Assembly: GCA_002393705.1 (NCBI GenBank)
Contig: DGTH01000096.1
Coordinates: 1 to 11,801, forward strand
Reading direction: 5' to 3'
Origin: Prevotella sp. UBA4341
GTDB lineage: Bacteria > Bacteroidota > Bacteroidia > Bacteroidales > Bacteroidaceae
Length of the DNA: 11,801 bases
Notes under the pieces: generated by a model
The model's database searches: none
Seen by the model: the letters and a program-made list of their open reading frames with translations, nothing else
Told to the model about the DNA's origin: nothing
Made by a program: the position numbers and the translations under genes
Shown here: positions 7,981 to 11,801 of the stretch, in pieces
Position numbering within the stretch: the stretch's first letter is position 1
Layout of the letters: the number at the start of each line of letters is the position of its first letter

Positions 7981-8038
7981 CAGCCAACGGCACGTGGAAG
8001 AAGGTGCAGTAAAACAGTCAAGCAAAACTATCTCAACT

Positions 8039-9757
8039 ATGAATATTAGCAATTTTCGTAACAGCTATCTTATCGACAAGGCTTACCGGCTAACCCTGTT
8101 GAGTGTTACGCTTACGGCATTGGCACCGCTCATAGCTACGCTGGTAGATGGGCTCTTTTCGAGCAACCTGTTGGGCAACGATGCTTTCATCGCAGTGAGT
8201 GTGGTGCTACCTTTAGTCAACGCAGTGAGCGTGCTGACGATGATATGCGAACGCGGCGGCGCAGTGCTTGCAGCAGGTCAGCTGGCCAAGGGCAACCGCG
8301 ACAAGGCCAACCGCATATACACAACGGCATTGGTCTCGGCGGTGCTGGTGGCGGTATTAGCGGCTGTGGGCATCTGGATTAACCTCGACAGCATCTCTTT
8401 GGGACTGACCGGCAGGCCCGAGAGCGCAGCGTATGCCCGCGAGTACCTACAGGTGATCGTAATCTACCTGCTCATCCTGCCGCTAAACAACACGTTCAAC
8501 GACTTTGCAACGCAAGAGGGGGTTCCGCAGTTAACCACCCGGGCCGTGGCTATGGGCAGCGTGGTCAATGTGGTGCTCGACATCCTTTTCATCGGTGTTC
8601 TCGACATGGGCATCAGCGGTGCGGCATGGGGTACGGTCATTTCGGGTCTCATCAATCTCGCGCTCATATCGCCCCATTTCCTTAAGGGCAAGAGCCAGTT
8701 CAGATTGGCGCGACCGCAGGGCGACCAGGGTGCCATCATCGGCGAGAACCTCAAGCATGGCTTCGGCTTCAACGTCTATTTTATCGTGGTAAATGCCTTT
8801 ATGCTGCTGGGCAACGCATTGGTGCTGAAAGTGGCAGGACACGACGGGCTGACGCTCTTTGATGTATGTCTGCAGATACAGTCGGCCACGTTCTCGGTTG
8901 TTTTGGGACTCACTATGGCTGGCGTCTCGCTCGTCACCTACATGCGTGCTACCGGCGACAGCGACGGACTGCGGCGCATCATGAATAATACTGCCAGCAT
9001 ACTGGTGGGATTCTACGGTGTGCTACTGCTGTTATTGGTGGCTGTGCCGCAGTTTTTCCTGTGGTGTTTTGGGCTCGACGGTATCGACCTCGCCCTGGCC
9101 CGCAGGGTGTTCACCTGCTTTGGCATCTACTACTTCTGCTTCTGTGCGGTAGCGGTATATGCCACTGTCGTACTGCAACTGGCAGGTCTCGTCACGGCCA
9201 AGATCGTGCTGGTATTCGCCATGGGCATCATAGCCTATCTGAGTATGCTTGGCCTTTCGGAGGTCAGTGCCGATGCCATGTGGCTGGGAATGATTGTGGG
9301 TGGTGTGCCTATCCTTGTGGTCAGTCTGGGTTACGGCTACAGGAGGCACCTCAAGCACCCGTTCTATACCAAGTTCTCGTTGGTCGATAAGATGCCTTCG
9401 TGTATTAAGTTCGAATGCTCGATAGATTACGAGCAGCATAATCTTGAAGAGATGAAGAAGATGATCAAGTTATTTGCCGTCATCTGCGAGATGAGCGACG
9501 AGCTGAGTTTTAAGATGTACTCTACTATCCTGGCGCTGTTAAACAATGCACGGGAGCGTAGAAGCCGTCATCTTAAATATCTTGACATCACGCTCTGCGA
9601 GTTAGACGACGGGGTCCAGATGACCATCAAAGACTGCGGCCGTCCCTACGACCCGGTACACAATGGTATGGATGCCGCATCTGTAGGCGCCCGCTCTGCC
9701 ACCTACCGCTACATGTTCACCATGAATGTAACAACTATAGTATGGAATAAAATATAA
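8039..9757 (+). CDS. MATE-family efflux transporter fused to a C-terminal histidine-kinase-like ATPase domain
   Basis: 572 residues from ATG 8039. Residues about 15-435 contain some twelve hydrophobic segments arranged as in MATE/DinF cation-coupled exporters of drugs or metabolites in the inner membrane (for example 21-40, 52-72, 94-116, 135-155, 170-212, 243-265, 275-300, 318-345, 355-382, 385-432). GDQGAIIGENLKHG (228-241) lies at the mid-protein loop. After residue 440 comes a soluble domain of about 130 residues resembling GHKL/RsbW-type ATP-binding folds: a helix with LLNNARE (500-506) like an N-box, IKDCGRPYDP (530-539) like a G1 box, and a terminal YRYMFTMNVTTIVW strand. The Glu usual before the N-box Asn in RsbW kinases is not evident, so ATP or nucleotide sensing rather than phosphorylation is plausible. 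Substrate unknown. Confidence 0.88.
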   Translation: MNISNFRNSYLIDKAYRLTLLSVTLTALAPLIATLVDGLFSSNLLGNDAFIAVSVVLPLVNAVSVLTMICERGGAVLAAGQLAKGNRDKANRIYTTALVSAVLVAVLAAVGIWINLDSISLGLTGRPESAAYAREYLQVIVIYLLILPLNNTFNDFATQEGVPQLTTRAVAMGSVVNVVLDILFIGVLDMGISGAAWGTVISGLINLALISPHFLKGKSQFRLARPQGDQGAIIGENLKHGFGFNVYFIVVNAFMLLGNALVLKVAGHDGLTLFDVCLQIQSATFSVVLGLTMAGVSLVTYMRATGDSDGLRRIMNNTASILVGFYGVLLLLLVAVPQFFLWCFGLDGIDLALARRVFTCFGIYYFCFCAVAVYATVVLQLAGLVTAKIVLVFAMGIIAYLSMLGLSEVSADAMWLGMIVGGVPILVVSLGYGYRRHLKHPFYTKFSLVDKMPSCIKFECSIDYEQHNLEEMKKMIKLFAVICEMSDELSFKMYSTILALLNNARERRSRHLKYLDITLCELDDGVQMTIKDCGRPYDPVHNGMDAASVGARSATYRYMFTMNVTTIVWNKI

Positions 9758-9779: not shown

Positions 9780-9823
9780 AAGCAGGGAGTTTATGCCAGG
9801 GAAGCAGGGAGTTTCTGCCGGGG
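9780..9823. repeat. Two tandem copies of a 22-base sequence
   Basis: 9780-9801 and 9802-9823 are identical at 20 of 22 positions (core AAGCAGGGAGTTT). They start 22 bases after the transporter stop codon. A weaker partial copy may precede them from 9762. Function unknown. Confidence 0.8.
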
Positions 9824-9971
9824 AAGGCAATGATATCAAAAAGCAGTGCAATGCTTCCACAAATGGACAATTTTCTGCTAAAATCACATAAAAACCCAAA
9901 CTTTTTTGTGTAAATAGAAGGTGGTTTGAAGTTTTGTATGTAAATTTTGGTACATTTTTCTCATCATTTCT

Positions 9972-10002
9972 TTTGCAGTTTACTAAATAATGCTTAACTT
10001 TG
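9972..10002 (+). promoter_or_regulatory. Near-consensus Bacteroidetes promoter without an obvious gene
   Basis: TTTG at 9972-9975 and TAACTTTG at 9995-10002 are separated by exactly 19 bases, the best promoter match in the window. Transcription would start near 10009, reading rightward into a stretch that has no convincing gene. Confidence 0.65.
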
Positions 10003-10426
10003 CCACCGACAAAGCCAGTCCAAGCAGTCAGAGGCCAGCAATGGCTGATGATTGTGAGGGCAGGGCGGGTCAAAACAAACATCGATGGAATCCTGAGGCT
10101 GAGCATGCCATTTGTAAGGACAGCCGAAGGGAAAGGACGTTTTCTGAACGTTACCTGTCTGTGCAGTCAAATCTCGCAAATTTGAATCTTTCCACAGCGG
10201 TAATGCAACGAAGCGTTCGCGTGGGTGTATTATATCCCGGCTGTTCGTTGCTATCATTGTATTTTGGTGGTTAGCATCTACGCCGAACTATATAATATTA
10301 CTCGGCGTGGGCTGGCTTGCGTTGCTTATCCTTGGAAAGAGGCAATGCGAGAGCCTGACTGCAGGGATAGGCACGGAGGAACAAACTCCCACGTATTCTA
10401 TGCTAAAATCCAAACATTTTTTATAG
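10003..10426 (+). other. Transcribed-looking stretch without a convincing gene
   Basis: About 420 bases downstream of a strong promoter. All three forward frames contain only short open segments without recognisable domains. Two clean hairpins are present: GCAACGAA (10205-10212) with TTCGTTGC (10244-10251), and a 9-bp stem CTACGCCGA (10278-10286) with TCGGCGTGG (10302-10310; one G-T pair). It could be a structured RNA, a decayed gene, or the non-coding part of another mobile element. Low certainty for any of these. Confidence 0.35.
10148..10426 (+). pseudogene. Hydrophobic reading frame lacking a start codon, possible gene remnant
   Basis: The frame from 10148 to the TAG at 10424-10426 encodes 92 residues including two likely membrane segments, LFVAIIVFWWLAS and YIILLGVGWLALLIL, then a polar tail. 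There is no ATG before the last few residues, and the same frame upstream is interrupted by several stops (for example TGA 10145-10147). It may be the 3' remnant of a small two-span membrane protein or a chance frame. No family recognised. Confidence 0.25.
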
Positions 10427-10431
10427 TTTAA

Positions 10432-11493
10432 CTAAAAATTAACACACATGGCATAATTCTTTACATCGTCACTTTTCTTGCTGGGGCAAGGATTATATTT
10501 TTCCTTCTTTCTGACCATCGCTACCAGTATGTGCAGTATTTTATTCTTTACGTTATTGATTGCTACCTGTCTTTTCTTCCCTTTTTGTATCATTCTGTCA
10601 TAGTAGGTTCTTATCTCCGGCTCAAACTCTTTGGCTACGTGTGCAGCCTGTCCGAGCAGGGACTTGATGAGCTTGTTGGCGAAGTGGCTTGTTGTGGGGG
10701 CGGTGTTGATGCTTGTCCCAGACTGTTTTCCAAAAGGTGCCACTCCGTAGTAACAGGCGATCTTTCTTGAGTCGTAGTTGAATTTCTTGAAGTTGTTGGT
10801 GTAGATCATCAGGCATGCTGCGTTCTGCAGTGCCACGCCCCTCATGGAGGTGATGATGTCGTAGTTCTCACGTAACGCCTCGTCTGCGGCGATGATTTCC
10901 TTCATCTTGTCATCGCACTGCTTGATGGCCTTATTGAGTTCAGCAATGAGGTGCTTGGTCTTGCGCTCAACGAAAGAAAGCGCCTTTGACTTGCCTCTGA
11001 CGGCCTCCTTCTCTATACTCCTTACCTGTAGCCTTACACGCTGTTCTACGAGCTTATGACGGTAGAGGAATATCTCACGCAGTTCCTGCAAGTTCTCGTC
11101 CATAGGTTCAAACAGTTGTGCCTTGTCCTGATGGCGCCAGGCGTACTCAGCGATGACTGCAGAGTCTGCCTTGTCGCTCTTGACGCGCTGTATGCCGGAG
11201 GAATGCTTGATAGCATATGCATTAGCCACCCACATATCGTAGCCACGTCCGTAAAGCCAGCGGCTCAATGGCAGGCTGCATGCGCCCGTATCCTCTCCGC
11301 AGAAGAGCCATTCCTCCTGGACGGTCTTCCATGCGTTCTGCTTCACCCACTTGACAAAACGCTTGAATCCTTTGGGATCGTTGGTGAAGGTTTCCCACTT
11401 GCGATCCTCCAGTTCGTGGAGACCCGCTGCCAAAATCACTGTCGCATCAAACTTTTTCTTCGAAAAATCGATGCCGATAAACAATTTTTTCAT
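10432..11493 (-). CDS. IS110-family transposase (DEDD/RuvC-like with C-terminal serine domain)
   Basis: 353 residues, full family length. The N-terminal RuvC-like domain shows D9 in FIGIDFSKKKFDATV, E67 in FCGEDTG, and D107/D110 in KSDKADSAVIAEYA, the expected DEDD set. A helical, probably coiled-coil stretch (about 132-210) follows. The C-terminal Transposase_20 domain begins at ITSMRGVALQNAACLMIY (214-231), continues with KFNYDSRKIACYYGVAP, and has FGKQSGTSI with S258 as the likely catalytic serine. These recombinases work with a structured RNA from the element itself that base-pairs with target and donor DNA. No internal stop or frameshift, so it may be active. The ATG at 11493 is the only sensible start. 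Confidence 0.95.
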   Translation of the reverse strand: MKKLFIGIDFSKKKFDATVILAAGLHELEDRKWETFTNDPKGFKRFVKWVKQNAWKTVQEEWLFCGEDTGACSLPLSRWLYGRGYDMWVANAYAIKHSSGIQRVKSDKADSAVIAEYAWRHQDKAQLFEPMDENLQELREIFLYRHKLVEQRVRLQVRSIEKEAVRGKSKALSFVERKTKHLIAELNKAIKQCDDKMKEIIAADEALRENYDIITSMRGVALQNAACLMIYTNNFKKFNYDSRKIACYYGVAPFGKQSGTSINTAPTTSHFANKLIKSLLGQAAHVAKEFEPEIRTYYDRMIQKGKKRQVAINNVKNKILHILVAMVRKKEKYNPCPSKKSDDVKNYAMCVNF

Positions 11494-11504
11494 ACCTTTG
11501 TACC

Positions 11505-11682
11505 GTTTTTAATTATAACTGGCCACTGGCTGCCTTGACTCTAAACTCTAAGTAGGCTCGAAGCCATTAATATTCTATCAGAGCTTTGCAGCTGGGCAGG
11601 GGAGGGCCGTAACGCAGGCTAGTCTCACAAGGACTTTCTTTTTTATGGTTTCCCTCTCCTGCCGGTCAGTCTTTCCTTCAGA
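11505..11682 (-). ncRNA. Candidate bridge RNA (seekRNA) of the IS110 element
   Basis: Read in transposase sense from about 11680: a small 5' hairpin (GTCT/AGAC) is followed by a 12-position stem, 5' arm at 11663-11652 and 3' arm at 11606-11595, with one A-C mismatch. The stem encloses an internal loop whose left strand is 11651-11636 and right strand 11620-11607, capped by an AGTC/GACT hairpin. Next comes a weaker stem GCTGC/GCAGC enclosing a second loop capped by GGCT-TCG-AGCC (11565-11555). Two successive looped stems match the target-binding and donor-binding loops of IS110 bridge RNAs. A promoter sits just upstream. The 3' end is not defined and the RNA may continue into the transposase message. 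Confidence 0.65.
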
Positions 11683-11685
11683 CAA

Positions 11686-11714
11686 CAAAGGTAATAAAAC
11701 TGACCTTAATCAAA
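11686..11714 (-). promoter_or_regulatory. Putative promoter of the bridge RNA
   Basis: In transposase sense, TTTG (11714-11711) and TACCTTTG (11693-11686) are separated by 17 bases. Transcription would start near 11679, at the base of the first hairpin of the candidate RNA. Confidence 0.5.
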
Positions 11715-11786
11715 GCATCAGACGCAGAAAAACAATTAACATCCCGCCGGATTTTCGTCAAGTTCTTCATCCCATCTGACTTTGAT
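11709..11786. repeat. Bulged inverted repeat in the outer part of the IS110 left end
   Basis: ATCAAAG-CA-TCAGA (11709-11722) pairs with TCTGA-CTTTGAT (11775-11786): 12 base pairs with a 2-base bulge, 52 bases apart. The inner arm overlaps the -33 region of the bridge RNA promoter. Confidence 0.5.
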
Positions 11787-11790
11787 GCCG

Positions 11791-11798
11791 CAAAGTTA
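11791..11798 (-). promoter_or_regulatory. -7 box at the outer edge of the IS110 left end
   Basis: Transposase-sense TAACTTTG (TAnnTTTG), three bases inside the predicted left end. Its -33 element would lie outside the integrated element, or be provided by the right end in a circular form. Confidence 0.45.
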
Positions 11799-11801
11799 GA
11801 G

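What the first reader, a model, noticed from the sequence alone, without database searches (positions are those of the whole stretch)
11505..11693. IS110 non-coding end has the architecture of a bridge RNA with two guide loops
Seen: a -33/-7 promoter, then an 11-of-12 paired stem enclosing an internal loop with two unpaired strands (11651-11636 and 11620-11607) and an apical hairpin, then a second stem enclosing a loop capped by GGCT-TCG-AGCC. Known: IS110 recombinases use an RNA from their non-coding end with a target-binding and a donor-binding loop, and can be reprogrammed by changing those loops. Inference: this is a native bridge RNA from a Bacteroidales element, with a transposase whose catalytic residues are all present.
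Basis: partly seen in the sequence, partly recalled or inferred. Interest (0 to 1): 0.75.

Follow-up and report, generated by a model that had tools for sequence, protein, structure and literature searches.

The report
Bridge RNA of a Bacteroidales IS110
The non-coding end of this jumping gene very probably makes a guide RNA that pairs with both the element's own ends and the DNA site it inserts into; this is a gut-bacterium member of the recently described bridge RNA systems, with some structural twists of its own.

Summary
The window carries an IS110-group element (10393-11801, - strand); five recombinase residues align with the IS621 catalytic set. Its left end encodes a bridge RNA. A covariance model built without the window and L002-L009 finds it as the only hit in 11.8 kb (111.6 bits). 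Among 40 relatives, 34 of 42 stem pairs show double changes. All four guides match their own DNA far better than permuted pairings. The contig stops at the left end, but empty sites in relatives read AAAAAGAC|GTGGGAG: left guide 8 of 9 in three of four loci, right guide 4 of 6 plus two wobbles. Correction: the internal -33/-7 promoter is weak (12 of 40); a Bacteroidota-type promoter formed by joining the ends is better kept (28 of 43 exact). Additions: an outer helix closes both loops into a three-way junction; the shared core base is C alone, not CT; one handshake position covaries (35 of 40); some right flanks copy the element's own left-end hexamer, unexplained. No transcript or activity was tested. 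New member of a known kind, possibly a variant.

The parts
10435..11493 (-). IS110 recombinase, 353 aa (stop at 10432-10434); D9, E67, D107, D110, S258 align with IS621 D11, E60, D102, D105, S241
   Evidence: Pfam DEDD_Tnp_IS110 8.2e-22 and Transposase_20 7.3e-13; alignment to IS621 8wt6 E 2.5e-18 and ISCro4 9t56 E 8.5e-19, residue mapping
10393..10401 (-). right end: left donor ATAGAATA plus core C (10393)
   Evidence: same sequence ends the right end of relatives, flanks diverge after C in multicopy genomes
10411..10414 (-). TTTG, -33 half of the proposed junction promoter, 22 nt from core C
   Evidence: exactly 22 nt from core C in 28 of 43 distinct right ends
10386..10393 (-). right target, C|GTGGGAG
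   Evidence: flank of the element; 4 strict / 6 with wobble of 8 letters against the right target guide
11796..11801 (-). left end: core C (11801) and right donor TCTAA; the contig stops here
   Evidence: left flank not available
11791..11798 (-). TAACTTTG, -7 half of the proposed junction promoter
   Evidence: TAnnTTTG in the 34 left ends listed, though the donor letters before it change; the left ends were located with consensus strings that include these letters
11698..11705 (-). strand U (GGTCAGTT), can pair with strand M in place of strand D
   Evidence: own U:M pairing reached by 0 of 2000 permutations, but the U:D control is also reached by only 1 of 2000; weak when a fixed register is imposed
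11675..11691 (-). short hairpin CCTT/AAGG (5' stem-loop candidate)
   Evidence: 98.8% of cells paired, two pairs with a double change in one sequence each
11664..11673 (-). outer helix P1, 5' strand (strand M)
   Evidence: 10 of 10 pairs show double changes among 40 relatives, 77.1% of cells paired; in the window 8 of 10 columns pair, one as G-U (letters)
11515..11524 (-). outer helix P1, 3' strand (strand D)
11652..11663 (-). target-binding loop stem, 5' strand
11595..11606 (-). target-binding loop stem, 3' strand
11636..11644 (-). left target guide AAAAAAGAA
   Evidence: guide at this offset matches the left flank in relatives; against the empty sites, 8 of 9 for L090, L091, L095 and 7 of 9 for L096 (my count from the printed letters)
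11613..11618 (-). right target guide CCTGCG
11571..11578 (-). left donor guide ATAGAATA, identical to the right end
   Evidence: 8 of 8; across relatives 39 of 43 full matches versus 2 of 1470 for other end types
11544..11551 (-). right donor guide TTAGAGTT, complementary to the left end (CTCTAA)
   Evidence: 6 of 6 by letters; across relatives 42 of 43 versus 20 of 718
11555..11565 (-). apical hairpin GGCT-TCG-AGCC of the donor-binding loop
   Evidence: 86.9% of cells paired
11527..11594 (-). donor-binding loop with its stem
   Evidence: stem 89.0% of cells paired, 4 of 6 pairs with double changes; in the window 4 of these 6 columns pair

Best explanation
The left end of this IS110-group element encodes a bridge RNA on the same strand as, and directly upstream of, the recombinase gene. 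The RNA folds into a target-binding loop and a donor-binding loop. [quoted passage not shown] in the second loop the strands pair the same way with the joined right and left ends of the excised circle. The recombinase (RuvC-like DEDD plus serine domain) then exchanges strands next to an invariant C. When the element excises, its ends join and rebuild a Bacteroidota -33/-7 promoter that would transcribe the RNA. Shown here by comparison of sequences: fold, guide-DNA matches at all four guides, crossover point, aligned catalytic residues, junction promoter letters. Inferred: transcription, RNA-protein binding, recombination.
For: Fold: (22 of 22 IS110 loci left out of the model are hit, 0 of 9 loci without the element). 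Left target guide: 44 distinct pairs, own 7.23 of 9 versus 3.87 for others, 0 of 5000 permutations. Right target guide: 47 pairs, 5.32 of 8 versus 3.67, 0 of 5000. Donor guides. Copies in one genome with changed guides have matching changed flanks (G162 CTAACGACC/CTAATGACC; G347 AGAATGAC/AAAGTAAC). Empty sites for the window's target. Handshake position: 35 of 40 versus permutation mean 11.2, maximum 22. Protein. Junction promoter.
Against: No transcript or binding data. The window's own left flank is missing because the contig ends at the left end. Its left guide has A where the target has the crossover C, and its right guide needs two wobble pairs (4 of 46 other right flanks score at least as well). 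Single copy in a 62% complete genome, so no sign of recent movement in this host. The relatives are related to one another, so pairs are not independent and permutation counts are not probabilities. No Rfam family reaches its gathering score.
Confidence: 0.95

Rival explanations
1. The structured region is only a leader of the recombinase mRNA that controls its translation, with no guide role.
For: It lies directly upstream of the start codon; ACAAAGGTA before the ATG is the exact complement of TACCTTTGT in the hairpin; strands U and D can both pair with strand M.
Against: A plain leader does not explain loop strands that match each element's own flanks and ends.
Confidence: 0.03
2. The bridge RNA is transcribed from the internal -33/-7 promoter named by the first reader, so integrated copies make it constitutively.
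For: TTTG, 17 nt, TACCTTTG in the window; TTTG at 19-20 nt in 12 of 40 relatives; the TAnnTTTG letters are nearly invariant.
Against: 28 of 40, the window included, lack a TTTG at that distance; TACCTTTG pairs with AAGG, so it seems to be inside the RNA; the junction promoter is better kept.
Confidence: 0.2
3. It is a dead copy: a real bridge RNA family, but this element no longer moves.
For: Single copy in its genome, guide mismatch at the crossover base, two wobble pairs.
Against: Open reading frame, aligned catalytic residues and both donor guides intact; genome only 62% complete.
Confidence: 0.25

Closest known systems
IS621 bridge RNA and recombinase (IS110 group; PMC11208160, PMC11208158)
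   Same: Left-end RNA upstream of the gene; target-binding then donor-binding loop; 5' strand of each loop pairs with the bottom strand, 3' strand with the top; promoter rebuilt at the joined ends; handshake position next to the core; the five catalytic residues align.
   Different: Shared core base is a single C instead of CT; TTTG/TAnnTTTG promoter instead of sigma-70; left end 308 nt here (about 250 to 317 in relatives) instead of 191; an outer helix closes both loops into a three-way junction, which the IS621 text that I read does not describe (5' stem-loop plus two further stem-loops). Figures could not be read.
ISEc21 and its seekRNA (IS110 type; PMC11187229)
   Same: Upstream non-coding region, joined-end promoter, RNA matching both target strands with the top-strand match 3' of the bottom-strand match; natural redirection in a relative (ISMch6) (section 12).
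   Different: Not compared by sequence here; the reported main RNA is 74 nt.
ISCro4 recombinase (PDB 9t56)
   Same: Best-scoring solved chain by sequence, E 8.5e-19.
   Different: Its RNA was not compared.

Membership tests
IS110 group bridge RNA elements | Recombinase with DEDD RuvC-like domain and C-terminal domain with conserved serine | tested here: met
IS110 group bridge RNA elements | Long non-coding left end with the RNA upstream of the gene on the same strand | tested here: met
   left end 308 nt, model hit
IS110 group bridge RNA elements | Two stem-loops with internal loops, supported by covariation | tested here: met
IS110 group bridge RNA elements | First loop strands match bottom and top strand of the target | tested here: met
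   across relatives; for the window's left half only through empty sites in relatives
IS110 group bridge RNA elements | Second loop strands match the element's own ends | tested here: met
   window 8 of 8 and 6 of 6
IS110 group bridge RNA elements | Promoter rebuilt across the joined ends | tested here: met
   letters and spacing only; activity not tested
IS110 group bridge RNA elements | RNA is transcribed and bound by the recombinase; recombination is RNA-guided | not testable with these tools
   needs RNA-seq and a binding or recombination assay
IS621 subgroup | CT core dinucleotide | tested here: not met
   both junctions share only C; the base before it varies on the left
IS1111 group | RNA in the right end, downstream of the gene | tested here: not met
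   RNA is upstream
IS1111 group | Subterminal inverted repeats of 7 to 17 bp | tested here: inconclusive
   no inverted pair joins the two ends in 9800-11801, but one search reports only repeats of 12 or more

The most novel reading that the evidence does not exclude
Bacteroidales IS110 elements form a structurally distinct bridge RNA class: an outer helix ties both guide loops into one three-way junction, this helix competes with an alternative upstream pairing that could switch the RNA between forms, the core is a lone C, and the elements sometimes recombine their right end with genomic sites that mimic their own left-end hexamer, leaving deletions or inversions.
Probability: 0.4. Interest if true: 0.65.

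Novelty: new member of a known kind. Interest (0 to 1): 0.45.

Why it matters
The bridge or seek RNA systems whose experiments I read about here are from E. coli (IS621, ISEc21, ISEc11). A small, naturally retargeted system with a Bacteroidota-type promoter would be a candidate for programmable insertion in gut Bacteroidales. The relatives with known flanks suggest guide lengths (left 9, right about 6, donor 8 and 6 positions, one handshake position) before any experiment, and the outer helix raises a testable question: in IS621 the two loops of one complex are thought to come from two RNA molecules, so a helix that ties them together may change how the complex is built.

Tried and rejected
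Rfam at gathering thresholds: no hit in the window or in 5 repeat loci. A scan of viral contigs with patterns from the one protein (close relatives only) and a blastn search of plasmids found nothing. Own genome: no second copy of gene or left end. RNAalifold on the 40-row alignment gave only 14 pairs, I think because the register shifts between classes; the structure that I named was counted with the misaligned rows kept. In some searches one of five measures, the number of further pair types, is not above shuffles (55 of 500 and 464 of 500 as high). Alternative pairing U:M in a fixed register is weak, and slides of +1 and +2 give higher covariation; only the register-free test is strong, and its control U:D is itself reached by only 1 of 2000 permutations, so relatedness inflates that test. 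Solo RNAs: of 27 model hits in 150 genomes, 19 lie next to recombinase matches, 3 more next to partial, broken or weaker genes (L107, L113, L122), 2 have no gene in the fetched stretch (L117, L120) and look like decayed remnants, 3 were not examined. Handshake test first run with a wrong register in elements with two TTAGAG copies (30 of 40), corrected (35 of 40); the position next to the C shows no signal (21 of 40, as in permutations). The target-loop handshake is weaker: 16 of 27 at one position, 3 of 5000 permutations as high, its control against the own target 13 of 26, 177 of 5000.

Rows dropped: one search parsed 70 of 86 loci (8 without the hairpin motif, 8 without the simple anchor motif). 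Eight loci that repeat a place already held were dropped before the statistics; identical guide-flank pairs were counted once, except, where identical end-flank pairs were; rows without a flank on the contig were not counted. L061 was left out (no exact right donor guide); it is the one right-donor miss, and the four left-donor misses are L034, L061, L052 and one of 7 ATAGGAAG rows. The alignment of 40 was chosen from 57 by a 95% identity limit. L099-L102 came later and are in none of these statistics (L099 and L100 were searched).

Full report
What was checked. The finding names 11505-11693 on the - strand. I read the letters, folded them, and collected relatives by protein at E up to 1e-60: 38 of 398 genomes of the same genus, 15 of 399 of the family draw, 3 of 393 of the order draw, each count including the window's own genome and the draws overlapping, plus 8 named loci in genome contigs, of which 6 are titled as Bacteroidales, Bacteroidaceae or Bacteroides, one as Mediterranea and one as a Lachnospiraceae metagenome bin. 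A viral-contig scan and a plasmid search found none.

The element. The gene at 10435-11493 is an IS110 recombinase. Aligned with IS621 (8wt6) and ISCro4 (9t56), D9, E67, D107, D110 and S258 fall on the IS621 residues D11, E60, D102, D105 and S241; the PDB chain numbering runs two ahead of the paper's, an offset inferred from the fit of all five (residue names from passages of PMC11208158). Genomes with several copies (G162, G060, G194, G347) fix the ends: flanks diverge after a C on both sides. By the same consensus the window's right end finishes at 10393 and its left end begins at 11801, which is also the contig end. So the left flank of this copy is not in the assembly.

The fold. On 40 relatives below 95% identity (alignment A1) the named structure has 81.3% of cells paired against 70.2% in shuffles, 34 of 42 pairs with double changes against 24.8, covariation 0.358 against 0.175, none of 500 shuffles as high; further pair types are not exceptional (73 against 69.2, 55 of 500); partner slides of 1 to 3 columns give 31 to 54% paired. 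The outer helix (11673-11664 with 11524-11515) has a double change at all 10 pairs; in the window 8 of the 10 columns pair, one as G-U. A covariance model from 20 relatives that exclude the window and L002-L009 finds the window region 11674-11513 as its only hit, the 22 other IS110 loci that I gave it and left out of the model, and none of 9 loci without the element. I chose the structure knowing the window, so the model is held out in sequence, not in design.

The guides. One search compares each element's flank with its own and with the other RNAs at fixed offsets. Left target: 44 distinct pairs, 7.23 of 9 versus 3.87; own flank best or tied in 32. Right target: 47 pairs, 5.32 of 8 versus 3.67; best or tied in 21. 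No permutation of 5000 reaches either mean. Donor: the left donor guide equals the right end at 8 of 8 in 39 of 43 distinct cases, against 2 of 1470 pairings with other end types; the right donor guide fits the left end at 6 of 6 in 42 of 43, against 20 of 718. Ends and guides change together: ATAGAATA, ATAGAATG, ATAGAAAG, ATAGGAAG, TTAGGAAG, ATAGATTG, ATAAAATG; CTCTAA, CTTTAA, CTTTAT, CCCTAA, CCTTAC. Three end types do not fit fully (ATATAATT 6 of 8, ATAGATTA and CTAGGAAG 7 of 8). Natural retargeting shows within genomes: L044 differs from L041 by two bases in 230 upstream of the gene, one of them in the left guide, and its flank carries the same change; in G347 the more diverged copies L053 and L054 (gene 909 of 1035 identical) have different left guides, each fitting its own flank at 8 of 9 (L030 is the same place as L053). 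Retargeting in nature is already reported for ISMch6 (PMC11187229, section 12 read).

The window's own target. Searching 100 relatives with the right flank found empty sites. Of nine loci examined, L090, L091, L095 and L096 read AAGAC|GTGGGAG, L092, L093, L094 and L098 read AAGGCATGGGAG, and L097 matches elsewhere. The left half fits the window's guide AAAAAAGAA at 8 of 9 in L090, L091 and L095 and at 7 of 9 in L096 (my count), with a mismatch at the crossover C; the target is rich in A, so this match is less telling than its length. The right guide fits C-GTGGG with 4 strict and 2 wobble pairs; 4 of 46 other flanks score at least as well with wobble allowed, so this half alone would not convince. 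These loci are copies of a dispersed repeat, not proven orthologues of the insertion site.

Promoter. Joining the ends gives TTTG-N20-TAACTTTG. TTTG lies exactly 22 nt from the core C in 28 of 43 distinct right ends; 10 of the other 15 differ by one letter there (my count), and 5 (L027, L029, L030, L031, L061) do not have it. TAnnTTTG and TTTG are the sigma-ABfr -7 and -33 motifs of B. fragilis; the -33 motif was not found in Flavobacterium johnsoniae (PMC7366714, passages). IS621 likewise rebuilds a promoter on excision (PMC11208160, section 5).

Handshake position. In IS621, bases beside the core in one loop pair with the other DNA after strand exchange (PMC11208158, passages). Here the donor-loop base two before the core C equals the target base in 35 of 40 distinct cases (permutation mean 11.2, maximum 22) and does not follow the own donor (6 of 38); the base next to the C shows no signal. 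The target-loop counterpart is weaker. In the window this position would be a G-U wobble if the empty-site target is right.

What it is and how it differs. The defining features of an IS110-group bridge RNA element that could be tested are met. Against IS621 the core is C alone; the outer helix is not described in the IS621 text that I read (sections 5, 6 and 12 and passages of PMC11208160; section 7 and passages of PMC11208158), but figures are not held and Durrant and colleagues report diverse structures, so I file it as a new member, with the variant reading as the novel case. Searches for print on Bacteroidales bridge RNAs listed no paper with that subject in its title; I did not open the listed papers beyond the three IS110 ones, and subscription papers and preprints are mostly not held.

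Open points. Strand U (11705-11698) and strand D can both pair with strand M (0 of 2000 permutations for each, but 1 of 2000 for the U:D control), which would allow a switch between a 5' hairpin and the closed three-way form; a fixed-register count does not support U:M. Right flanks that copy the element's own left-end hexamer occur in 5 of 55 elements exactly and in 9 of 55 at 4 or 5 of 5 letters after the C (expected 0.05 and 0.86 with equal base use); the same comparison at five other offsets gives at most 1 exact match and at most 3 with exactly four letters. Two hexamer types are copied exactly and a third nearly; L027 and L028 seem to share one site. I suspect recombination of the right junction with a left-end mimic, but did not test it.

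Noticed in passing
L007, L017, L046, L063, L075 (exact); L027, L028, L029, L084 (4 of 5): Right flank begins with the element's own left-end hexamer (CTCTAA, CTTTAA-like or CCTTAC by type) instead of a match to the right target guide; 5 of 55 exact, expected 0.05. Could be adjacent deletions or inversions through a left-end mimic.
   Followed up: partly
window 10059-10393 (-); L090-L096, L098: The element sits at the edge of a dispersed repeat of about 335 nt found in 16 of 60 genomes including the window's own, in some at several places; no Rfam hit in 5 loci. Its nature is unknown.
   Followed up: partly
L117 384-533 (-), L120 1501-1648 (+): Bridge RNA hits without a recombinase gene in the fetched stretch, apparently decayed remnants.
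   Followed up: partly
window 11493-11501 and 11685-11693: ACAAAGGTA just before the start codon is the exact complement of TACCTTTGT in the 5' hairpin; it may hide the start codon in some transcripts.
   Followed up: no
L099, L101, L102 (G1116): Relatives in another family of the order: the left guide CGTCCCTAC equals the left flank in L099 and L101 and fits at 8 of 9 in L102 (read by eye, not in the statistics).
   Followed up: no
window 7994-9754 (+): MatE transporter whose C-terminal part looks, from memory, like a regulatory histidine-kinase-type ATPase; no Pfam match there.
   Followed up: no
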